In this document: positions 44,412 to 55,322 of the stretch, piece after piece
How the letters are laid out: every line of letters starts with the position of its first letter
Numbering within the stretch: the stretch's first letter is position 1
Notes under the pieces: model-generated
Database searches by the model: none
Told to the model about the DNA's origin: nothing
What the model saw: only the letters and a program-made list of their open reading frames with translations
NCBI RefSeq assembly: GCF_009905545.1
Contig: NZ_JAAALB010000012.1
Location: forward strand, 62,001-126,000
Source of the DNA: Cellulophaga sp. BC115SP
GTDB taxonomy: Bacteria; Bacteroidota; Bacteroidia; Cytophagales; Spirosomataceae
Direction: 5' to 3'
DNA: 64,000 nucleotides
Translations under genes and position numbers: made by a program

Positions 44412-45845
44412 CTAGTAGGTCAATCTCAAGCCTATTTCTTTTGCTTTAGGTAGATATTCATCTTTGATATATCCAAATACGGGAAATTCGGCCTCTAAAA
44501 TATTCATTACGATTCCATAAAAACCAGTTCCTAGGTTAAAATAAGTCAGAAACGTATCAATAGATATTTGTCCACCACAAAACTGGAGATAACTATCATA
44601 CTGCATCGATCCAAGTAAATTAGCGCTCATTCTGTCGAGAATACTTAAGTATAGCTGAGGATTTTGATTTAGTATGTTATTGGCTTCATGCCGCTTGGCA
44701 TTAGTATACTCCTCTAATAGTTGATCTTTCCGATATTGTTGTTCTTTTTTACGTTGAACTTCCGCCTTTTGGGTGGCTTGTATTCTTTTGGCTTCCTCTT
44801 TCTTTTTTACCTCCCGTTGCTGTGCGTGCATTAGGTCTGGACTTTTTACCATGATGGTCAAATAACCTCCAATATTTTTGATATTTCGTCCAGTAGCAAG
44901 TTCTTTTTTCAGATAGTTAATTGCTAGTTGTATTTGCTCGACAGATATTTCATCAAGCCACTCTTTAATGGTGTGCTGCGTAATTCCAAAATCTTTTACC
45001 TGCTCGTAAATTAAGTTTAGAGTCTCGTTTGCTTGAATTTCTATTGATTGCGTTATCAACGGCAATGGGTCTTTATTAGCCTCTTTAAAACTAGCCGATA
45101 TTTGCTCTACCAATGGATCTTCAACTTCCTCTAGTTTATTTTTCTTTACCACAAACCTTAATTTAACGACTTTTTTCCCTTGTTTGATTTCGTTAAACTC
45201 AAAATACAATTCCGAATTTTTCATTAACTCGTTTTGTGCTTGTACAACTACTTTCATTTTAAAATCAAAATAGTTTTTGTACTTGTGCTCAATGTTAAAC
45301 ATTCTTTTGAGCTTATCTACTTCAAATTCAAATGTCCCGATGCGTTCTTTCTCTTTACATATTTCATAAAAACGCATTGCATACGAGCTATCTAGCCGTA
45401 AAATATTTCGAATATCTAATACCGTAAAGTTTTCTTTGAGTTGTAATAAAAACGGTTTTAGGAGATTGGGAAATTCTAATACAAAATACCCTTCTTTTTT
45501 GAAATATACATAGCCACTTATCAAGTGTGAATCTAATTCTATGCGATCGTCTTTGTAATAAACTTTCTTGTCAATCATCTTCTTCACCTCTTGTTGCAGG
45601 TGCGAATACAAACTTCCTCCTTCTACACCAGTAAATTTTTGAAAGTCTTTCACTGTGATAGTTAGTGGTACAAAACTTTCTTTGCTGATGTCCAATAACG
45701 ACAGCATGTAAATAAAAAGCTTCATTTGAGTCGGAGTTAACTCAAAACGAGCTTCTATCAGAGGATTGCCCTTGACAATCCGATAAGGGTCTTTGGTCAC
45801 GCTATCCAAAGCTTGCTCTCTTTTCTCTGTCTTCATATCTTCCAT
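44412..45845 (-). CDS. Rep_3-family plasmid replication initiator (RepB-like)
   Basis: The 477-residue protein has the Rep_3 two-winged-helix core. The first winged helix is about 20-130 (NPLIEARFELTPTQMKLFIYMLSLL, TITVKDFQKFTGVEGGSLYSHLQQEVKKM). The second is about 140-240 (ILRLDSSYAMRFYEICKEKERIGTFEFEVDKLKRMFNIEHKYKNYFDFKMKVV). A long helical, Lys/Glu-rich C-terminal part from about 330 is an extension beyond the usual 300 residues. It should bind the iterons at 46029-46651 and open the origin. A second ATG three codons in is possible. Its presence with iterons and parAB marks a plasmid or chromid. Confidence 0.9.
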   Translation of the reverse strand: MEDMKTEKREQALDSVTKDPYRIVKGNPLIEARFELTPTQMKLFIYMLSLLDISKESFVPLTITVKDFQKFTGVEGGSLYSHLQQEVKKMIDKKVYYKDDRIELDSHLISGYVYFKKEGYFVLEFPNLLKPFLLQLKENFTVLDIRNILRLDSSYAMRFYEICKEKERIGTFEFEVDKLKRMFNIEHKYKNYFDFKMKVVVQAQNELMKNSELYFEFNEIKQGKKVVKLRFVVKKNKLEEVEDPLVEQISASFKEANKDPLPLITQSIEIQANETLNLIYEQVKDFGITQHTIKEWLDEISVEQIQLAINYLKKELATGRNIKNIGGYLTIMVKSPDLMHAQQREVKKKEEAKRIQATQKAEVQRKKEQQYRKDQLLEEYTNAKRHEANNILNQNPQLYLSILDRMSANLLGSMQYDSYLQFCGGQISIDTFLTYFNLGTGFYGIVMNILEAEFPVFGYIKDEYLPKAKEIGLRLTY

Positions 45846-46028: not shown

Positions 46029-46135
46029 CACCATAAAAGTAGTTTTAATGCACCATAAAAGTAGTTTTAAGCACCATAAAAGTAGTTTTAATGCACCATA
46101 AAAGTAGTTTTAAGCACCATAAAAGTAGTTTTAAT
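46029..46135. repeat. Iteron group A: five direct repeats at 21/22-bp spacing
   Basis: CACCATAAAAGTAGTTTTAA starts at 46029, 46051, 46072, 46094 and 46115, spacings 22, 21, 22 and 21. All five copies are identical over the core. A half copy (GTAGTTTTAA) precedes them at 46018. An inverted ATGGTGCTT at 46134-46142 pairs with AAGCACCAT at 46112. They are two helical turns apart, so bound initiators would line up on one face. Confidence 0.95.
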
Positions 46136-46142
46136 GGTGCTT

Positions 46143-46320
46143 AAAAAACTGAAAATCAAATAGTTACAAACCCCTAAAAGATTTAAAAGAATAAAAGATT
46201 TAAAAGACAACAAAGGAAATTGTTGATTTTTTATTAATTTTTTTCTTAAAAATTCAAGTTTAAAAATCTTCTAAAATTAGTCATGGATAAAATTCGTACG
46301 AGAAAGAATTGAAAGTGGAG
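46143..46320. other. A/T-rich segment with direct repeat, candidate unwinding element
   Basis: TAAAAGATTTAAAAGA occurs at 46175-46190 and again at 46192-46207, followed by long A and T runs (46226-46275). Location between the two iteron groups fits a DNA unwinding element. This is inference from composition. Confidence 0.6.
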
Positions 46321-46321
46321 A

Positions 46322-46651
46322 CACCATAAAAGTAGTTTTTAGTGAAAGTAGTTAAAACAGCACCTGCACCATAAAAGTAGTTTTTATAAAACGATAAAAA
46401 TTGACCAAACACCATAAAAGTAGTTTTTTTAAAGCTGTAAAAAATCCTCATGGCACCATAAAAGTAGTTTTTGAGTAACTCGATAGAAGAATATAGACAC
46501 CATAAAAGTCTTTTTTGAATTTATGATTAGACCTTGTAATGCACCATAAAAGTAGTTTTTTGAAATTCCATCAAAATTATAAATGACACCATAAAAGTCG
46601 TTTTTATTGTTGGCTTATCTTTTACAAATTGACACCATAAAAGTCGTTTTT
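46322..46651. repeat. Iteron group B: eight direct repeats at 43-46-bp spacing
   Basis: The same core CACCATAAAAGTAGTTTTT starts at 46322, 46367, 46410, 46454, 46498, 46542, 46587 and 46633, all in the orientation of group A. Spacings are 45, 43, 44, 44, 44, 45 and 46, about four helical turns. Copies 5, 7 and 8 have variants AGTC or AGTCG in place of AGTAG. Spacers differ in sequence, so spacing rather than sequence is conserved. Confidence 0.95.
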
Positions 46652-46698
46652 ACTTTCAATAAAATATGTTGCTTAAAGAAAGAATTATTATAAGGTAG

Positions 46699-46761: not shown

Positions 46762-47718
46762 ATGATAAGCCAAGAATTAGTCCTAAAATTCTTAAGACAT
46801 AATCCAGCACTTTCTGTTTCGACTGTAGAAAAGGAATCAACCCTAGCGAAAGGAACACTTACCAAAGCCATCACAGGCGAGCGAAATCTGAATGAAAGGC
46901 ATTTAGCTGCGCTATTACCAGTATTGACTAAATATGGATATTCGCCGAATCTTTATCAAAACGCTCGTGTGATTTCGATAATTAATCACAAAGGAGGTGT
47001 TGGTAAAACTACTACGACAGGTTCTTTGGGGGAAGCTTTAGCCAGAAAGGGATTTAATGTATTATTGATAGACATGGATCCTCAGGGAAATTTGTCTCAA
47101 ATACTAGGAGTAGATACCCCAGAAAAGCAAGTTGTAGATGCCCTGCTGAAAGCAGATGAGTTGCCAGTCATGAATATTGCTCCAAATTTAGATCTAAGTC
47201 CATCAGATATAGATTTGGCCAAGGCCGAAATAGAATTAATTATTTCTTTGGGGGGAGTGTCGAGGCTCAAGAACAAATTAGTCCCATTGATGGAGCAATA
47301 CGATTACATTCTGATCGATTGCCCTCCCTCGCTCAACGCACTTACCTCTTCGGCATTGATTGCATCCAAAAGCTGTTTAATCACACTTCAACCGGAGATA
47401 TCTGCTGTAAAAGGATTAAACACCCTTTTAGATAGAATCTCGGAAGTTCGTACAAGCTGGAACCCTGCTATTGAAATAGATGGAATCGTATTTACCATGG
47501 TAAAGAAAAACTCTGTACACGATGGCGTGAAAGAACACGTTAGAGAAAGTATGTCACAGTTCAGAGTATTTCGTACTGAAATAAAACATCTTGTAGATTT
47601 TCAAAAAGCACAAATAGAACAAAGCACAATATCCAAATTTGCTGAAAATTCGGAAGCAGCCAAATTGTATCGTGAGTTTTCGGAAGAGTTTATACAGTAT
47701 TTACAAGTGGTAAAATAG
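46762..47718 (+). CDS. parA: ParA partition ATPase with N-terminal DNA-binding-like domain
   Basis: The 318-residue protein has a deviant Walker A motif KGGVGKTT at 77-84, Walker A' in DMDPQGNLS, and Walker B in YILIDCPPS. The first 65 residues (STLAKGTLTKAITGERNLNERHLAALLPVL) look like a helix-turn-helix, as in type Ia ParA proteins that repress their own promoter. It segregates the replicon with the ParB and centromere that follow. It starts about 110 bp after the last iteron. Confidence 0.92.
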   Translation: MISQELVLKFLRHNPALSVSTVEKESTLAKGTLTKAITGERNLNERHLAALLPVLTKYGYSPNLYQNARVISIINHKGGVGKTTTTGSLGEALARKGFNVLLIDMDPQGNLSQILGVDTPEKQVVDALLKADELPVMNIAPNLDLSPSDIDLAKAEIELIISLGGVSRLKNKLVPLMEQYDYILIDCPPSLNALTSSALIASKSCLITLQPEISAVKGLNTLLDRISEVRTSWNPAIEIDGIVFTMVKKNSVHDGVKEHVRESMSQFRVFRTEIKHLVDFQKAQIEQSTISKFAENSEAAKLYREFSEEFIQYLQVVK

Positions 47719-47725
47719 AGATTAG

Positions 47726-48646
47726 ATGAAAGCAAATTTTAAAGACGTTATAGCCTCCAAAACCAAGCAAGCCTTGGGTAGTAATCTCATATCCCTCGAG
47801 GCCATCAAGCAAAACATACAAATCCTTGAAGAACTTCGCGATTTTATACCTCCTTTGAGTGTTGAAGAATCTCAACAACTTGAACAAAACATTTTAAAAT
47901 ACGGATGTAAAGATGCACTATTGGTATGGGAAACCACTCGAAGTGTAGCTGGATTAAGTCTCACAGAAGACTCCACACCAGCCTATATCCTAATAGATGG
48001 ACACAACCGCTATCGAATTTGTCAAACCAATCAATTGAATTTCAATATTCAATTACTGTCTTTTAACACCTTGAAGGAAGTAAAAGACTATATGATTGAT
48101 TTGCAATTGGGGCGTCGTAATCTTACACCTCAACAGGCATCTTATTTCAGAGGTTTGCGCTATAACAACGAAAAATCTGAAAGAGGTAAATATGACCGTG
48201 TTACTGACGAAGGACTCATTAACGTCGATGATTATTTTGAAAGTAAGAAGGTGAAAGTTTCCACAGCATCGAAACTATCTGAGGAATATAAAGTAAGTCC
48301 TGCTACAATTCGCCGTGATGCTGAGTTTGCTGAAGGGCTGGGAAAATTGTCTACCACCTTACGAAATGAAGTCTTGGCTGGAAATCAAAATATTGAAAAA
48401 GGGCTTTTACAAAAAGTCGCTAAAGTAAGGGAGTTACCTAAACCTATTGAAAGCGCTGATGAATTGGTAACGGTGTTACAAACAAGTGGATTAGTAGAAA
48501 GAGTTGAAACCGTTCCAACAGACCATACACTTGTCAATTGTTCCAATGAAATTATAGCCCTTGTAAAGAAAATTGTTAATGCAAAGGATAAAGAAAGACT
48601 AGAAGAATTAAAAAAGTTAGTTGGTAAACTAGAAGAATTACTTTAA
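47726..48646 (+). CDS. parB: ParB-family centromere-binding protein
   Basis: The 306-residue protein has the ParB N-terminal fold (IPPLSVEESQQLEQNILKYGCKDALLVW). DGHNRYRI at 91-98 stands where chromosomal ParB has GERRxR, so CTP binding may differ. Then comes LGRRNLTPQQASYFRGLRY and a helix-turn-helix around STASKLSEEYKVSPATIRRDAEFA. The C-terminal tail is Lys/Glu-rich and may dimerise. It begins 7 bp after parA. The 47-bp repeats after its terminator are the likely binding sites. Confidence 0.9.
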   Translation: MKANFKDVIASKTKQALGSNLISLEAIKQNIQILEELRDFIPPLSVEESQQLEQNILKYGCKDALLVWETTRSVAGLSLTEDSTPAYILIDGHNRYRICQTNQLNFNIQLLSFNTLKEVKDYMIDLQLGRRNLTPQQASYFRGLRYNNEKSERGKYDRVTDEGLINVDDYFESKKVKVSTASKLSEEYKVSPATIRRDAEFAEGLGKLSTTLRNEVLAGNQNIEKGLLQKVAKVRELPKPIESADELVTVLQTSGLVERVETVPTDHTLVNCSNEIIALVKKIVNAKDKERLEELKKLVGKLEELL

Positions 48647-48678
48647 CAAAAAAGAGGTCAATCGACCTCTTTTTTGTT
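48645..48678 (+). terminator. Intrinsic terminator of parAB
   Basis: A perfect 15-bp stem (AACAAAAAAGAGGTC) with a 4-nt loop and T6 on the descending arm. It begins in the parB stop codon and works in both directions. Confidence 0.88.
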
Positions 48679-48684
48679 ATCAAC

Positions 48685-48811
48685 CATATTGCTCATTTTG
48701 AGCACTATGGTTTGAGCATTCTCATCACTATCATAATGCTCATTTTGAGCATTATGGTTTGAGCGTTTTGATCATTATCATATTGCTCATTTTGAGCACT
48801 ATGGTTTGAGC
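48685..48811. repeat. Three 33-bp palindromic repeats with 47-bp period, candidate parS
   Basis: Units at 48685-48717, 48732-48764 and 48779-48811 repeat exactly every 47 bp with 14-bp spacers. Each begins with a 25-bp palindrome, arms CATAATGCTCA / TGAGCATTATG around TTT in unit 2, with one arm mismatch in units 1 and 3. Each then carries a lone GGTTTGAGC half-site. Placement right after parB makes a centromere very likely, but this is inference. Confidence 0.8.
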
Positions 48812-49052
48812 GTTTCAGAGAGCATGATCAATGACAAATAGATATCAAGGGCAAGTAGCTATTTCTTAACAATGCTAAAATATAATTTTGAATAAAGAGC
48901 GTATTCTAAAATAATCAAAAAGTAAAATGAATATTAAGTAGAATATAATTTCTTTAAGAGAATTTATAAATTTTCATTTGGAGGTTGATATTTCATGGAT
49001 TTTTTCACTTTTTTTACATAAATCCATGATTGAACCTTCAAAATAATCTCGT
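48812..49052. other. Leader region upstream of the amidoligase operon
   Basis: No gene is seen. TAATTTTG at 48883-48890 matches the -7 consensus but has no good -33 partner. A 10-bp perfect inverted repeat TCATGGATTT / AAATCCATGA spans 48993-49029, ending 23 bp before the start of the next gene. It could be an operator or leader hairpin. Confidence 0.45.
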
Positions 49053-52000
49053 ATGTCTTTAAAAGTTGCGATTTCTCATAAAACTAAGTATAAGTTTGAT
49101 CGTAGCGTCAGCTTGTCTCCCCATATTTTTAGATTAAGACCTGCACCGCATTCACGAACTGCGATTGAAGGATATTCTTTAAAGATTACTCCTGAAGAGC
49201 ATTTTATTAACTGGCAGCAAGATCCATTTGGAAATTATCAAGCAAGAGTTGTCTTTCCTGAAAAAACAAAAGAGCTAAGTGTAGAAGTTGAGGTAATAGC
49301 TCGCATGGAAGTGATTAATCCTTTTGACTTTTTCGTGGAAGAATATGCTGAAAAATTTCCGTTCAGATACGATGAGATTTTAGCAAAAGAATTAGTACCA
49401 TATCTAGAAGCACGTGAATCAGGACCATTGTTGACGGAGTTTTTGAAAGAAGTAGAAGCTCAGGAAGATATTAATACTGTTGATTTTTTGGTGTATGCCA
49501 ATCAAAAAGTCTATGGTCATCTTGATTACAATATTCGGATGGAGCCAGGGGTACAAACTTGCGAAGACACACTAACAATTAAAAGTGGGAGTTGTCGTGA
49601 TTCAGCCTGGTTACTGGTTCAGATTCTACGTCATAAAGGTATTGCTGCTCGATTTGTATCTGGCTATTTGGTTCAACTAACGCCAGATGTAAAGTCATTG
49701 GACGGTCCTTCTGGTCCAGAAGAAGATTTTACAGATTTACATGCTTGGGTAGAAGCATATATTCCAGGTGCAGGATGGATTGGATTAGATCCAACATCAG
49801 GATTATTTGCAGGAGAAGGACACATTCCGCTGTGTTGTACACCTGATTATGCGAGTGCGGCACCTGTTACTGGAGCTACAGATATTTGTGAAGTAACTTT
49901 TGAGTTTGATAATAAAGTTTTCCGTATTCATGAAGACCCAAGGGTAACCAAACCTTACACTGACGAACAGTGGGAGAAAATCATGAAAGTTGGGAATATC
50001 GTAGAGAAAGATTTACAAGAAGGGGATGTGCGTATGACGATGGGAGGAGAGCCAACCTTTGTATCAATCGACGATTTTGAGTCTCCTGAATGGAACTCTA
50101 CCGCCGATGGACCACTCAAGCGACAACTTGCCTATAATCTTGCTTTGCGCCTTAAAAATCGCTTTGCTCATGGAGGCTTATTGCATTTTGGGCAAGGAAA
50201 ATGGTATCCTGGTGAATTGTTCCCACGTTGGCAGTATGCCCTTTACTGGAGAAAAGACGGACATACTATTTGGAAAAATGATGACCTTATCGCAAAAGAA
50301 GGACAAACAAATTATACTTTCCACGATGCTGAATTATTTGCAACAGAGCTCACCAAATACTTGGGTATTCGTCCGAGTAATTTATGCCCTGCTTTTGAAG
50401 ACCCTATTTATTGGACGTTAGAAGAAGGTAAATTACCTGTGAATGTAGACCCATTGGCAGTCAACCTAAAGGATTCGATTGAACGTCGAACCTTAGCCAA
50501 GGTATTGGAAAAGGGCTTAAATAACCCTGTAGGTTTTGCCTTACCCATACGATGGAACTGGAATACCAGCTCATGGACTAGTTGTGTTTGGGAATTTAGA
50601 AGAGAGAATTGCTTTTTAATTCCGGGTAATTCTCCTGTAGGTTTAAGATTGCCGTTAAATTCTTTACCCGCAATTTCTAAATTTCAAAGAGAAGAACCGC
50701 TAGAACGTAGTCCATTTGAAGATTTACCCGAACTGGGAGATTATAGTGCGGTTGCCGAGGCACGATATGGATCTGAAGCACCCGACTATGTGGCTCCTGT
50801 CAAAAAAGCCTCCAAAATCAAGGATGAAGAAAAAATAAAGAAGGCAGATGACTTGGAAGAAAAGCCTTTGTTGTTTGAAGTAAATACGATTCAAACAACC
50901 TTGGTAATTGAGGAAAGAGAAGGAATCCTATATGCCTTCTTGCCTCCAACAGAATACCTAGAGCATTATTTAGATCTTATCGCTTCTATTGAGGCTACCG
51001 CAGAGAAACTGCAAATGCCTATCAGAATAGAAGGATATACCCCTCCATCTGATTATAGAATGGAGAAACTTGTGGTGTCGCCAGACCCTGGGGTAATTGA
51101 GGTAAATATTCACCCATCAAAAAATTGGCAGGAGTTAGTCGACAATACCACGGCTTTGTATGAAGAAGCATTTCTGTCGAGATTAGGTACAGAAAAGTTT
51201 ATGGTAGATGGACGACACACAGGAACAGGTGGTGGTAACCACGTAACGATTGGTGGAGCAAAACCTGCTGATAGTCCGATTTTACGTCGCCCTGATTTAT
51301 TGCGTAGTTTAGTTACTTATTGGCAGCATCACCCTGTATTGAGTTATTTATTTGCTGGGTCATTTATTGGTCCAACAAGTCAAGCACCACGAGTTGACGA
51401 AGGTCGTGACGAGCGTTTATATGAACTCGAAATTGCTTTTGACCAAATCCCAGACGATGGCAATGTGCCATTTTGGATGGTAGATCGAATTTTCAGGAAT
51501 CTCTTGGTTGATATTACAGGAAACACACACCGTACCGAATTTTGTATAGATAAGCTGTATTCACCCGATTCTTCTACAGGTCGTTTGGGAATTCTTGAGT
51601 TTAGAGCTTTTGATATGCCACCACACAAGCACATGAATTTAGTACAAAATTTACTAGTTCGTGCCTTGATTGCTAAGTTTTGGAAACAGCCATATAAGAA
51701 AAAGTTAGTTCGTTGGGGAACAGAATTGCATGATAGATTTTTACTGCCTCACTTCGCCTATTTGGATATGATTGATGTAGTAAACGATTTGAAAGATGCA
51801 GGCTATGATTTTGATATTTCATGGTTTGATGCCTTTTTCGAATTCAGATTCCCACACCATGGTGGGGTAACTGTCGATAATCTACAACTGGAGCTTCGTT
51901 TAGGAATCGAGCCTTGGCATGTACTTGGCGAAGAACTCTCAAATTCTGGCACCGCTCGTTTTGTGGACTCATCATTAGAAAAACTACAAGTTAAAGTTTC

Positions 52001-52478
52001 TGGATTTGTTCAAGATCGACATATTTTAGTTTGTAATGGATGTCGAGTGCCATTACGTCCAACAGGAACTAAAGGCGAATATGTAGCTGGAATCAGATAC
52101 AAAGCTTGGAATCCACCGTCTGCTCTCCATCCTACAGTTGGTGTCGATGCACCATTGGTATTTGATATTGTAGATACTTGGAATAACCGTGTGATTGGTG
52201 GATGTACCTATTTTGTATCACACCCAGGCGGAAGAAGTTTTGATACGTATCCGATTAATAGCTACGAAGCCGAGTCGAGAAGAATTAGTCGCTTCTGGGG
52301 CTTTGGACATACTCCATCGACAACAGATATGGTGCCTGCTCCTGTTAGATTTAATACAGCGCCTTCACGATTTGTGGCTGAAAACAAAAAGGAAATGAAA
52401 ATCGATACGCCTGTTGAACTTATCAATGCTGAATATCCTACTACACTCGACTTGAGAAGATTCTGGAAGGCGAGATAA
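49053..52478 (+). CDS. Transglutaminase-like / DUF2126 predicted amidoligase fusion
   Basis: The 1141-residue protein has a transglutaminase N-terminal domain (about 1-85). A transglutaminase/protease core follows with the triad C181 (SGSCRDSAW), H230 (LHAWVEAYIP) and D246 (GLDPTSG). From about 310 (DVRMTMGGEPTFVSIDDFESPEWN) runs a DUF2126 region with HTGTGGGNHVTIGG and HRTEFCIDKLYSPDSSTGRLGILEFRAF. DUF2126 is classed as a putative amidoligase. It probably forms or cuts peptide-type bonds on an unknown substrate. The next two genes are its usual partners. No signal peptide is seen. Confidence 0.9.
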   Translation: MSLKVAISHKTKYKFDRSVSLSPHIFRLRPAPHSRTAIEGYSLKITPEEHFINWQQDPFGNYQARVVFPEKTKELSVEVEVIARMEVINPFDFFVEEYAEKFPFRYDEILAKELVPYLEARESGPLLTEFLKEVEAQEDINTVDFLVYANQKVYGHLDYNIRMEPGVQTCEDTLTIKSGSCRDSAWLLVQILRHKGIAARFVSGYLVQLTPDVKSLDGPSGPEEDFTDLHAWVEAYIPGAGWIGLDPTSGLFAGEGHIPLCCTPDYASAAPVTGATDICEVTFEFDNKVFRIHEDPRVTKPYTDEQWEKIMKVGNIVEKDLQEGDVRMTMGGEPTFVSIDDFESPEWNSTADGPLKRQLAYNLALRLKNRFAHGGLLHFGQGKWYPGELFPRWQYALYWRKDGHTIWKNDDLIAKEGQTNYTFHDAELFATELTKYLGIRPSNLCPAFEDPIYWTLEEGKLPVNVDPLAVNLKDSIERRTLAKVLEKGLNNPVGFALPIRWNWNTSSWTSCVWEFRRENCFLIPGNSPVGLRLPLNSLPAISKFQREEPLERSPFEDLPELGDYSAVAEARYGSEAPDYVAPVKKASKIKDEEKIKKADDLEEKPLLFEVNTIQTTLVIEEREGILYAFLPPTEYLEHYLDLIASIEATAEKLQMPIRIEGYTPPSDYRMEKLVVSPDPGVIEVNIHPSKNWQELVDNTTALYEEAFLSRLGTEKFMVDGRHTGTGGGNHVTIGGAKPADSPILRRPDLLRSLVTYWQHHPVLSYLFAGSFIGPTSQAPRVDEGRDERLYELEIAFDQIPDDGNVPFWMVDRIFRNLLVDITGNTHRTEFCIDKLYSPDSSTGRLGILEFRAFDMPPHKHMNLVQNLLVRALIAKFWKQPYKKKLVRWGTELHDRFLLPHFAYLDMIDVVNDLKDAGYDFDISWFDAFFEFRFPHHGGVTVDNLQLELRLGIEPWHVLGEELSNSGTARFVDSSLEKLQVKVSGFVQDRHILVCNGCRVPLRPTGTKGEYVAGIRYKAWNPPSALHPTVGVDAPLVFDIVDTWNNRVIGGCTYFVSHPGGRSFDTYPINSYEAESRRISRFWGFGHTPSTTDMVPAPVRFNTAPSRFVAENKKEMKIDTPVELINAEYPTTLDLRRFWKAR

Positions 52479-52580
52479 GTTTATCTGTAGTGCTAGGAGT
52501 GGTAAGATATGAGTTTAAAAATGTTTACAGACTCCTAACTTATCATTGTGTAGAAAACAATTGAGTAAGACTTTTGAAAG

Positions 52581-52636
52581 GGATAGGTTATCTGATGTTT
52601 TTTGATTCGTCGGGATAACCTATCCTTGTATTTTTT
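52581..52636 (+). terminator. Internal terminator in the amidoligase cluster
   Basis: A perfect 12-bp stem GGATAGGTTATC / GATAACCTATCC with a 21-nt loop is followed by TTGTATTTTTTT. It lies between the first and second genes, so they are probably transcribed as separate units or the downstream level is lowered. Confidence 0.8.
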
Positions 52637-52748
52637 TCGTAAATACTTACATTTATACTTTTTACGCTCATAGAATTATATGAGATAAATAAATCGTAAA
52701 TGATTTACCATTTTGCAGTCAATATTTTGAGTGCTTGCTTATGATAAT

Positions 52749-55322
52749 ATGATTACTGAAGTGAAAGATAGTTTACTCAAAGCATACCTTGGCGAAATAG
52801 AGTCTTACGACGAAATTTTGGACGCCAATCAACAAGTAAAACCTTATTGGAAAAAAATGTTTGATACCCTCGAAAAGTTGGGTATGGAACAACTGGTGGT
52901 GCGTAGTCAGGAATTAGCTAATAAACTACGTGAAAATGGTGTTACTTACAACGTATATGGTAGTTCTGAGGTAAGCGCTAGACCTTGGCAATTAGACCCT
53001 ATTCCTTTTTTATTGGAAAAGTCAGAATGGGATTTGATATCGGAAGGGTTGAAGCAAAGAGCCGTGGTGTTGGATTTGATGCTGAAAGATATTTATGGAC
53101 CTCAACTTTTAGTAAAAGAAGGTATATTACCTCCTGAGTTGATTTACGAAAATAGTGGCTTCTTTCGCCCTTGTATGGATGTAAAATTAGCATCCGAAAA
53201 ACAATTACTTGTTCATGCCGTAGATATAGCCCGTGGACCAGATGGTCGCATGTGGGTAGTCGATAACCGAACACAAGCGCCTTCGGGATCTGGATATGCA
53301 CTCGAAAACCGTACGGTTATGAGTGCCATATTGCCTGAACTGACTACTGGAATGACGGTCAATCGTCTTTCTCCATTTTTCAAAACTTTTCATAAAGAAG
53401 TTACTGCTCTGACAGGAAAAAGTCGAGAACACCCGACTATTGTGTACCTGACCCCAGGTTCAGGTAATGAAACCTATTTCGAGCATGCGTATTTGGCTTC
53501 GTATTTGGGCTATACTTTGGTTCAGGGCGATGATTTAGTAGTGAGAGATGGTTTTGTATGGCTACGTTCAATAGATGGCTTAGAAAAGGTTGATGTGATA
53601 ATTCGTCGAGTAGATGACGATTGGTGTGATCCGCTTGAGTTGCGGGAGGATTCTCGATTGGGCATTCCTGGCTTATTACAGGCTATGCGCTTAGGCAATG
53701 TAGCAGTGGTCAATACACCAGGAGCTGGAGTTCTTGAAAATAGTGGTCTTTTAGCTTTTATGGCGGCTGCTTGTCGCTTTTTTCTGAAAGAAGAGTTGAT
53801 ATTACCTTCCATTGCCACATGGTGGTGTGGACATCAACATGAACTCAATTATGTGATTGAAAACCTGCCTCAACTTATCATTAAAAAAGCGAATCGTAAG
53901 CAAGTTTTTCGTTCTGTATATGGCAGATTGTTAACGCCAGAACAGCGAGAAGAGTTAATACAACAAATTTTACTGGCACCTCACGAATACGTTGCCCAAG
54001 AAGAAATTGGACTTTCGACCACACCAGCCTTGGTAAATGGGAAGTTGGTGCCTCGTTTGGCGGCGCTTCGAGCTTACTTGGTAGCCAATGGCGACGACTA
54101 TATGGTTATGCAAGGTGGGCTGACAAGAAGTTCTGCTGTAAAAGGTCGTTTTGAAGTTTCACATCAACATGGGGGGTGTTCTAAAGATACTTGGATTGTA
54201 TCTGACACTGAAATAGCGCAAAAGGAGATTCGCATCGAAATGCCCAAAGAGTCGGTGCATCATCATACTTCCTTGCCTAGTAGAAGTGCTGAGAATCTTT
54301 TTTGGGTTGGTCGTTATGCCGAGCGAACTATGTCGACTACCAAATATATCAAGTTGTTGATTAATGCACTCCATGAAAGTGTCAAGTTTGGGAATGCTTC
54401 AAAGTCAGAACATATCGAAGTTTTGTTGAAAGGTCTAACACATTTGACGTTAACTTATCCTGGATTTTTAGATGAGGAAAAACCTGAGCTATTGGCTAAT
54501 CCTTACTCCGAAATACACAAGATAGTTCATGATCTTAAAATATTGGGCTCCGTGGCTTCCAGTACTGAAGCTTTTTTGAGAGGTGTGATTTCAGTTAGTG
54601 ATCGGTGGAATCATGATACATGGCGTGCTATTTACTCGATTGAGAATACATTTAAAAAAATTAAACGACCCGACGATGCTTATTCTAATAGCAACACCAT
54701 GCAAAAGCTATTAGATAAACTTCATGCACGTTTATTTACTTTTTACGGAATTGTAGCCGATACTATGCCAAGGGATAGTGGGTTTTATTTGTTCGAATCT
54801 GGAAAATTTATTGAAAGAATTTTACTAAAAATTAGTACAATTCGTGCTTGTTTTAGCTTTAAAAGCGAATCCCACATTGAGAATGAACTTATTGAAGCAG
54901 TTCTTATCAACCATCATTTGTTGATTCATTATCGACAGCTTTATAAATCCAACTTGAATTTGGAAGCCATGCTTGATATGATTTTTTTGGAAACAAAACT
55001 ACCTTATTCTTTGGCTTTTCAGTTGGATGAACTGGGGCGTTGTTTATCAGAATTACCTAAACCATCACATACAGAGCGTCTCAATTTGGCACAGAAGGCT
55101 GTCCTTCAGGCGACTATGAAAATCAAACTCGCTGATGTTTCTCAAATGGTCATTTTCGAGCAAGATACCTTGTATCGTGAATACTTAGATAGCTTACTGG
55201 CAGATGTATTCGATTTAATCTTATCAGTAAACAACTCTTTGACAAATTTGTACTTTACTCATACTGAAATACAACATTCTTTTTTGAGTAGTACCGAAAA
55301 TTCGAGTCAGAATGAAATATAA
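52749..55322 (+). CDS. Circularly permuted ATP-grasp / alpha-E fusion
   Basis: From the ATG at 52749 it has 857 residues; the GTG six codons earlier is less likely. The N-terminal half is a circularly permuted ATP-grasp ligase (PWQLDPIPFLLEKSEWDLISEGLKQRA, DIARGPDGRMWVVDNRTQAPSGSGYALENR, VIIRRVDDDWCDPLELREDSRLGIPGL). The C-terminal part from about 510 is the helical alpha-E domain (LPSRSAENLFWVGRYAERTMSTTKYIKLL). In other bacteria these are often two genes; here they are fused. It likely ligates an amino group to a carboxylate using ATP. It overlaps the next gene by 11 nt. Confidence 0.9.
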   Translation: MITEVKDSLLKAYLGEIESYDEILDANQQVKPYWKKMFDTLEKLGMEQLVVRSQELANKLRENGVTYNVYGSSEVSARPWQLDPIPFLLEKSEWDLISEGLKQRAVVLDLMLKDIYGPQLLVKEGILPPELIYENSGFFRPCMDVKLASEKQLLVHAVDIARGPDGRMWVVDNRTQAPSGSGYALENRTVMSAILPELTTGMTVNRLSPFFKTFHKEVTALTGKSREHPTIVYLTPGSGNETYFEHAYLASYLGYTLVQGDDLVVRDGFVWLRSIDGLEKVDVIIRRVDDDWCDPLELREDSRLGIPGLLQAMRLGNVAVVNTPGAGVLENSGLLAFMAAACRFFLKEELILPSIATWWCGHQHELNYVIENLPQLIIKKANRKQVFRSVYGRLLTPEQREELIQQILLAPHEYVAQEEIGLSTTPALVNGKLVPRLAALRAYLVANGDDYMVMQGGLTRSSAVKGRFEVSHQHGGCSKDTWIVSDTEIAQKEIRIEMPKESVHHHTSLPSRSAENLFWVGRYAERTMSTTKYIKLLINALHESVKFGNASKSEHIEVLLKGLTHLTLTYPGFLDEEKPELLANPYSEIHKIVHDLKILGSVASSTEAFLRGVISVSDRWNHDTWRAIYSIENTFKKIKRPDDAYSNSNTMQKLLDKLHARLFTFYGIVADTMPRDSGFYLFESGKFIERILLKISTIRACFSFKSESHIENELIEAVLINHHLLIHYRQLYKSNLNLEAMLDMIFLETKLPYSLAFQLDELGRCLSELPKPSHTERLNLAQKAVLQATMKIKLADVSQMVIFEQDTLYREYLDSLLADVFDLILSVNNSLTNLYFTHTEIQHSFLSSTENSSQNEI

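What the first reader, a model, noticed from the sequence alone, without database searches (positions are those of the whole stretch)
48685..48811. Candidate centromere: three palindromic repeats with an exact 47-bp period after parB
Each 33-bp unit holds a 25-bp palindrome (arms CATAATGCTCA) plus a lone TTTGAGC half-site, and the three copies are 47 bp apart with no drift. It lies between the parB terminator and an unrelated operon. Three TGAGC half-sites per unit, one unpaired, is an unusual centromere architecture and differs from the 16-bp chromosomal parS. The ParB here also lacks GERR, so the pair may recognise DNA in a non-standard way.
Basis: partly seen in the sequence, partly recalled or inferred. 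Interest (0 to 1): 0.75.

Follow-up and report, generated by a model that had tools for sequence, protein, structure and literature searches.

The report
Plasmid centromere array beside parB
The three repeats look like the site where a plasmid-sorting protein grips its plasmid; related plasmids carry matching sites, often inside the sorting gene itself, and the bases of each site track a few amino acids of the protein that reads it.

Summary
In detail: three units at an exact 47-bp period follow parB, and the core TGCTCA-WWW-TGAGCA occurs in the 7.08-Mb genome only there. The centromere reading is well supported. Two orthologues (95%, 93%) keep the array in at least 6 and in 9 copies. A third (71%) keeps the gene order but has two copies inside parB and none downstream. 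Across 80 homologous loci the family site is a ~25-bp palindrome, best consensus CATAA-N4-CA-NNN-TG-N4-TTATG; 72 of 80 show a form of it in or beside parAB, 49 of them wholly inside parB. Its variable bases track three ParB recognition-helix residues: 193 with base 8, 196 with base 6, 197 with base 10; the same pairs separate cleanly in 21 further loci, two of them on cyanobacterial plasmids. AlphaFold and Foldseek place the protein with ParB/Noc. Binding, CTP use and plasmid stabilisation are untested. It is a new variant of ParABS: replicon-specific, often intragenic parS sites with a readable recognition code.

The parts
48685..48709 (.). parS-like palindrome, copy 1 (10 of 11 pairs)
48732..48756 (.). 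parS-like palindrome, copy 2 (11 of 11 pairs)
48779..48803 (.). parS-like palindrome, copy 3 (10 of 11 pairs)
48682..48814 (.). whole centromere-like array, 47-bp period
   Evidence: orthologous arrays of at least 6 and of 9 units in L037 and L038
48711..48717 (+). lone TTTGAGC half-site after copy 1 (the others at 48758-48764 and 48805-48811); kept in 6 of 9 units of L038, lost in L037, so probably not essential
48644..48679 (+). inverted repeat after parB with a T-rich 3' arm, possible transcription terminator (not listed by the scan)
   Evidence: I4, 16-bp arms
47726..48646 (+). parB, 306 aa, centromere-binding protein of ParB/Noc fold
48299..48340 (+). codons of the predicted recognition helix (residues 192-205); A193, R196 and R197 covary with the palindrome bases
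48185..48253 (+). codons of the disordered linker (residues 154-176), the region where many relatives carry the palindrome inside parB; no copy here
46762..47718 (+). parA, 318 aa: ParA-type ATPase with about 68 residues ahead of the ATPase domain (HTH-like by eye, no Pfam match there)
44412..45845 (-). Rep_3 replication initiator of the same replicon
46030..46660 (+). 13 iteron-like ACCATAAAAGT repeats in two sub-arrays, probable origin (inferred)

Best explanation
The array is the centromere (parS) of a Rep_3-type secondary replicon in a Flectobacillus-like bacterium. A ParB dimer reads one 25-bp palindrome with two recognition helices, one per half-site. A193 sits over base 8 and its neighbours, R196 over base 6 and R197 over base 10, which fixes the replicon's word TGCTCA. 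Several loaded ParB dimers then engage the ParA encoded upstream, which moves sister plasmids apart. Co-resident plasmids use ParB paralogues with other words. Shown here: the genome-unique array, its conservation and relocation together with parB, selection on the DNA of intragenic copies, and covariation of helix residues with site bases. Inferred: physical binding and the residue-base contacts, nucleotide-gated clamping and spreading, activation of ParA, and plasmid stability.
For: Core found 3 times in 7.08 Mb, all in the array. Orthologues L037 and L038 keep it in at least 6 (array runs to the contig end) and 9 copies at 47-48 bp. L019 keeps ParA (93%), ParB and the DUF2126 gene in order but has its two TGCTCA sites inside parB and none downstream. 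In 80 loci there are 159 palindromes within parA-parB+1 kb, against 1-4 in five Markov controls and about 15 at the density found farther away; density is 11.5 per 10 kb in parB and 7.5 in the next 1 kb against 0.54 farther away. Intragenic copies located by peptide pair at 9.55 of 11 positions against 6.37 (sd 0.14) after synonymous codon randomisation. Of 247 ParB columns, the top mutual-information column is 193 for bases 7, 8 and 9 (9 nearly tied with two others), 196 for base 6 and 197 for base 10 (57 representatives). Counts: K193-G8 32 of 32, R193-G8 10 of 10, S193-T8 6 of 6, N193-C8 3 of 3, A193-C8 5 of 6; R196-T6 8 of 8; R197-C10 52 of 52, N197-A10 5 of 5. In 21 further loci: 15/0 versus 0/6, 6/0 versus 0/15, 4/0 versus 0/17; in the 13 under 70% identical to any earlier ParB, Fisher p = 0.0035, 0.0008 and 0.013. 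Model pLDDT 82.9; the 22 best Foldseek chains are all ParB, Spo0J or Noc.
Against: No binding or stability data exist. 8 of 80 loci (L065, L069, L079, L085, L086, L102, L104, L113), and 15 of 104 ParBs, showed no site by the scans; a few of the 72 may be chance hits, since about 15 of the 159 near palindromes are expected at the far density. Of 31 further loci 10 were dropped, nine for lack of a credible site and L169 as a duplicate of L168. Some co-resident plasmids share the inner six bases: L003 and L008 (TGGTCA), pEMTOL02 and pEMTOL05 (TGGACA), so outer bases must matter or cross-talk is tolerated. On the tree each residue-base pair has only 1-4 supported independent contrasts, none significant alone. 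For base 5 the best columns are not in the helix. A193 is less strict (A8 in L173 and in one site of L152; G8 in L100). The protein matches neither Pfam ParB_N nor a PDB sequence, and whole-chain TM-scores to ParB are low (0.21-0.38 by query length). L006-type ParBs share PAT at the helix start, yet no TGCTCA-like site was found for them.
Confidence: 0.91

Rival explanations
1. The array is an operator of the downstream transglutaminase/DUF2126 operon (or of parB), bound by a regulator other than ParB.
For: It lies about 240 bp upstream of the DUF2126 gene, which is conserved there in L038.
Against: L019 keeps DUF2126 downstream but has no array; its sites are inside parB. Other relatives carry the sites inside parB or upstream of parA. 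The bases track ParB helix residues.
Confidence: 0.03
2. The palindromes act as RNA hairpins: terminators or stabilisers of the parAB messenger.
For: Copies 1 and 3 fit a loose terminator pattern (3 found in the region, 1.3 expected from shuffles), while the inverted repeat before them was not listed. In L002, L003 and L007 the site sits in a 43-49-bp perfect or near-perfect inverted repeat just after parB.
Against: The inverted repeat at 48644-48679 already lies between parB and the array. Copies inside the parB coding sequence and upstream of parA cannot be terminators of the operon. Covariation with the HTH is not expected. A dual role in some paralogues is possible.
Confidence: 0.03
3. Intragenic copies are kept for the peptide they encode (HKGQN[VD]PY in the ParB linker), and palindromy is incidental.
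For: 89 of 91 scanned copies start in the same reading frame, and the peptide recurs.
Against: Pairing exceeds synonymous randomisation by 3.2 of 11 pairs. QN is replaced by HF in 8 of 73 distinct copies, where the centre is inverted. The same words occur in noncoding arrays. One frame is also expected from a common ancestral copy.
Confidence: 0.03

Closest known systems
F plasmid sopABC (type Ia ParABS)
   Same: Order parA, parB, centromere; tandem repeats of similar length (43 against 47 bp), each with one palindrome (PMC9178275, passages). A ParA region ahead of the ATPase domain is also recalled for SopA.
   Different: Site is about 25 bp with a 3-bp centre, not 16 bp; 3 copies (at least 6 and 9 in orthologues), not 12; ParB scores against no ParB or SopB model; many relatives put the site inside parB
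Bsr ParB-parS systems of Burkholderiales
   Same: Related palindromes, replicon-specific within one multi-replicon cell, read as a result of selection for compatibility (PMC5450999, passages, some from its abstract)
   Different: 16-bp palindromes with a CG centre and experimental binding data; here longer sites, often inside parB, without binding data
SCP2 ParATS (ParT), Streptomyces
   Same: 18-bp inverted-repeat parS inside the coding sequence of the centromere-binding protein (PMC12260392, passages)
   Different: ParT lacks a CTPase domain; this ParB has the ParB nucleotide fold and GxxR
Chromosomal ParB/Noc with parS or NBS
   Same: ParB fold; specificity set by few residues at the DNA interface (PMC7383237, passages)
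   Different: Different site; no PF02195 match; GHNR for GERR; a separate chromosomal ParB with GERR is present (L150)
repABC parS sites, Alphaproteobacteria
   Same: Sites in or close to the partition operon at varying positions, incompatibility determinants (PMC9040568, passages)
   Different: Other replication and ParB families; in the passages seen, mostly intergenic or at the 5' end of repB

Membership tests
Type I ParABS partition system | ParA-type Walker ATPase gene next to the centromere-binding gene | tested here: met
   AAA_31 1.2e-49, CbiA 4e-23
Type I ParABS partition system | ParB nucleotide (N-domain) fold | tested here: met
Type I ParABS partition system | Central helix-turn-helix | tested here: met
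   HTH_DeoR 21.3 bits, just over its cut-off of 21; model helices 180-188 and 192-205; this part was barely tested by the fold comparison
Type I ParABS partition system | GxxR P motif | tested here: met
   G92 H93 N94 R95; G92, H93 and R95 invariant in 64 rows; aligned to GERR (probability 3.2%)
Type I ParABS partition system | Pfam ParB_N (PF02195) by sequence | tested here: not met
   No match in the window protein at E up to 0.1, in 64 members at E up to 0.01, or in any of the eight paralogues when the own genome was searched; the family is divergent
Type I ParABS partition system | Cognate cis-acting palindrome near parAB | tested here: met
   by sequence association only:
Type I ParABS partition system | CTP binding, clamp closure, stimulation of ParA | not testable with these tools
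   needs biochemistry
F sopC-like centromere | Tandem repeats of about 43 bp, each with a palindrome, downstream of parB | tested here: met
   3 x 47 bp; at least 6 and 9 copies in orthologues
F sopC-like centromere | Cognate protein is a SopB homologue by sequence | tested here: not met
   No ParB or SopB model matched the window protein in Pfam or NCBIfam; it works like sopC but is not filed as SopB
Canonical chromosomal parS | 16-bp TGTTTCACGTGAAACA (sequence recalled) | tested here: not met
   Array sequence differs; 0 matches with at most 1 mismatch in the genome
ParT/SCP2 type | No CTPase domain | tested here: not met
   ParB nucleotide fold is present in the model

The most novel reading that the evidence does not exclude
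A family of plasmid ParBs, mostly in Cytophagales with distant members on cyanobacterial plasmids, reads ~25-bp palindromes by a near-deterministic code (residue 193 to base 8, 196 to base 6, 197 to base 10). Its ancestral centromere lies inside the parB gene, in the codons of the disordered linker, so that binding protein and site travel and diversify as one unit. This would let one cell keep many related plasmids apart. In the window's lineage the site moved out into a sopC-like array.
Probability: 0.7. Interest if true: 0.72.

Novelty: new variant of a known kind. Interest (0 to 1): 0.62.

Why it matters
It assigns a function to genes listed as 'hypothetical protein' beside parA on complete plasmids of Runella, Emticicia and Spirosoma (8 of 9, the ninth 'HTH domain-containing'; 7 of 7), and gives many of these plasmids a predicted centromere. 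The set is a natural library of dozens of related ParB-parS pairs, eight ParB paralogues in this genome alone, so the open question of how partition specificity diverges without crosstalk can be tested directly by swapping three residues and three bases. Intragenic placement would explain how protein and site stay linked.

Tried and rejected
Lone half-site as part of the architecture: rejected because L037 has lost it, though L038 keeps it in 6 of 9 units. Non-standard DNA reading because of missing GERR: rejected. DUF2126 operator: rejected on L019. Terminator: not a sufficient reading, though copies 1 and 3 fit a loose terminator pattern. PDB search by sequence: nothing useful, best E 0.29. 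Profile comparison of A2 with the chromosomal ParB: probability only 3.2%, though motifs align; the fold search settled it. Viral contigs: 3 relatives, 2 used, which showed the same site. Class-wide genomes: 4 of 395 with a match at 1e-10 (one the window's own genome, one of its family), against 71 of 222 in the family at 1e-15. Canonical parS and GTTNCACGTGNAAC are absent from the genome. Tree contrasts agree in direction but are too few to be significant singly; for A193 against C8 or A8 they go the same way in 2.5 of 3 and the other way in 0.1, for S193 against T8 there is 1. Mutual information also gave high values for some N-terminal columns (for example 16, 17 and 20), and for base 5 no helix column is first; I read these as shared ancestry. 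For bases 1-5 the best columns lie in the linker (156, 158), near the intragenic site, and are not interpreted. Literature: no report of this family's sites was seen in the listings or in the passages opened; PMC10645730 (passages) reports parAB on Persicobacter rrn plasmids but has no mention of ParB or parS by those words. Subscription papers and preprints are not covered. The viral structure library was not searched.

Full report
WHAT IS THERE. The window (G000:C24:62001-126000) holds a plasmid-maintenance block: a Rep_3 initiator (44412-45845, minus), 13 iteron-like repeats (46030-46660), parA (46762-47718), parB (47726-48646), an inverted repeat (48644-48679) and then the array. The three units are exactly 47 bp apart. 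The middle palindrome is perfect over 11 pairs and the outer two pair at 10 of 11. The general pattern is absent from 100 shuffles, and its 15-bp core is found in the 7.08-Mb genome only at these three places.

THE SAME SITE IN RELATIVES. The genome carries eight ParB paralogues. Six of the eight have a recognised palindrome near parAB, each with a different 11-base half-site: CATAATGCTCA (window), CATGCGGTTCA, TCTAATGGTCA, CATAAAGGTCA, CCAAGTGGACA, CGCAGTGGTCA. L005 shows a weaker one when read by eye and L006 none. The orthologues L037 and L038 keep the window's array with at least 6 units (cut by the contig end) and 9 units; 4 of the 9 in L038 have TGCCCA on the left arm. In L019 (71%) the gene order including the DUF2126 gene is kept, but the two TGCTCA sites lie inside parB and none follows it. 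Location therefore moves while the word stays with the protein; on the tree the inside/outside state changes at least 8 times.

FAMILY SITE. In the 80 loci, palindromes with a CA-NNN-TG core and at most 2 of 11 mismatched pairs number 86 in parB (by midpoint), 57 in the next 1 kb, 16 in the 1.7 kb before parB and 33 in 612 kb farther away. That is 159 near, against 1-4 in five order-1 Markov controls and about 15 at the density found farther away. 63 of 80 loci have one near. In 49 loci a copy lies wholly inside parB; in 5 more the only copy in the gene overlaps the parB stop (one search counted these together as 54). Nine of the 17 without have the variant CATAAGTGCAA-NNN-TTGCACTTATG, all at or after the end of parB, which makes 72 of 80. 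The remaining eight have none that I recognise.

INSIDE THE GENE. Of 91 copies that start in parB, 89 are in one frame, typically reading HKGQN[VD]PY; 65 of 91 lie between the N-domain and HTH landmarks (the rest lack a landmark or lie elsewhere, six of them at the stop). Copies located by peptide alone pair at 9.55 of 11 positions, against 6.37 (sd 0.14, maximum 6.77 of 500 draws) under synonymous codon randomisation (90 instances, 73 distinct, three of them chance peptides). So the DNA palindrome is selected beyond the peptide. In the AlphaFold model of the window protein the matching linker, residues 154-176, is the longest stretch under pLDDT 50.

RECOGNITION CODE. From 104 ParBs (80, 8 own, 16 of the 20 genus loci; L017, L018, L028 and L035 left out as duplicates or fragments) 89 have a site, 57 of them under 85% identity to each other. 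Of 247 columns the best for half-site bases 7, 8 and 9 is residue 193, for base 6 residue 196, for base 10 residue 197; for base 9 columns 20 and 148 are nearly as good, and for base 5 no helix column is first. Controlling for overall identity keeps 196, 193, 193 and 197 first for bases 6, 7, 8 and 10; for base 9 residue 197 is first and 193 third. The three residues lie at the start of the predicted recognition helix 192-205. Counts are in Best explanation. Of 31 further loci, the strict scan found a palindrome in 19; its top palindrome obeyed the base-8 rule in 18 of 19, the base-10 rule in 18 of 19, and the base-6 rule in 14 of the 15 where a rule exists (failures L173 for base 8, L187 for bases 6 and 10). 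For the table of 21 (17 strict, 4 by eye; 10 dropped: L164, L169, L174, L180, L181, L185-L189) the separation is complete for all three residue-base pairs. Some of these are close relatives of earlier loci (8 of 21 at 70% identity or more), and the 13 others separate as well. The best single case is pEMTOL03: its helix EKTIRND calls for T6, G8, A10 by the rules, and the sites CATAATGGTAAAATTTTCCATTATG and CATAATGGCAAAATTTACCATTATG, first seen, are in its parB. The Oscillatoria plasmid locus L166 carries TCAAGTGGTCATTTTGACCACTTGA inside its gene. On a tree without helix and linker columns there are 3, 4 and 3 supported independent contrasts for K/R193-G8, R196-T6 and N197-A10, going the same way in 2.8, 3.9 and 3.0 and the other way in none; no single test reaches 0.05.

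COMPLETE PLASMIDS. On nine complete plasmid records (five scanned whole, four over 48-50 kb of 59-107 kb), clear family sites lie only in or within about 250 bp of parB; the remaining hits have mismatches or, in one case, are AT-rich. In pEMTOL03 this scan found no family site; one search did. Among the co-resident plasmids examined the sites differ: Runella rosea (GTCCCA, GGCTCA, GTGCAA), Runella slithyformis (GTCCCA, GTGCAA), Emticicia oligotrophica (four). Against a simple compatibility story, pEMTOL02 and pEMTOL05 share TGGACA, and the window genome's L003 and L008 share TGGTCA; outer bases must then decide, or cross-talk is tolerated.

MECHANISM. ParB dimers load at the palindromes, ParA engages the loaded complex, and sister replicons move apart. 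This follows from the known type I systems and is not shown here. An array of tandem palindromes after parB is the F sopC plan (PMC9178275, passages); replicon-specific palindromes in one cell are known from Burkholderiales (PMC5450999, passages); one plasmid parS inside its binding-protein gene is known from SCP2 (PMC12260392, passages). What is new, as far as the held library shows (listings), is this ParB family with its ~25-bp sites, their frequent placement inside parB, and the residue-to-base code.

Noticed in passing
46030-46660: 13 ACCATAAAAGT[AC]... iteron-like repeats in two sub-arrays, five spaced 21-22 bp and eight spaced 43-46 bp, beside the Rep_3 gene.
   Followed up: partly
L150 (own genome C1), 997-1938 minus: A chromosomal ParB with GERR beside ParA is present, but the usual parS (at most 1 mismatch) and GTTNCACGTGNAAC are absent from the genome; its centromere probably differs.
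   Followed up: partly
L003, L025, L052 (paralogous replicon): Five to eight palindromes, mostly at about 79-bp spacing, upstream of parB, most of them ahead of parA, one inside parB and one in a 45-bp inverted repeat just after parB: three site locations in one replicon.
   Followed up: partly
L006, L065, L069 downstream of parB: ParBs of this type have no family site; a long inverted repeat with half-sites like CACAAAGTGA follows parB instead.
   Followed up: no
L161 (Persicobacter pPP3), 50-1083: Five AAGTGGTAA-WWW-TTACCACTT palindromes upstream of parA, irregularly spaced, agreeing with the code (T6, G8, A10).
   Followed up: partly
L163 and L167: E196 goes with C at base 6 in two distant loci (an Aureibacter and a cyanobacterial plasmid), a possible further rule.
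   Followed up: no
49053-55322: Transglutaminase/DUF2126 and circularly permuted ATP-grasp/Alpha-E genes next to the par locus, conserved there in L038.
   Followed up: no
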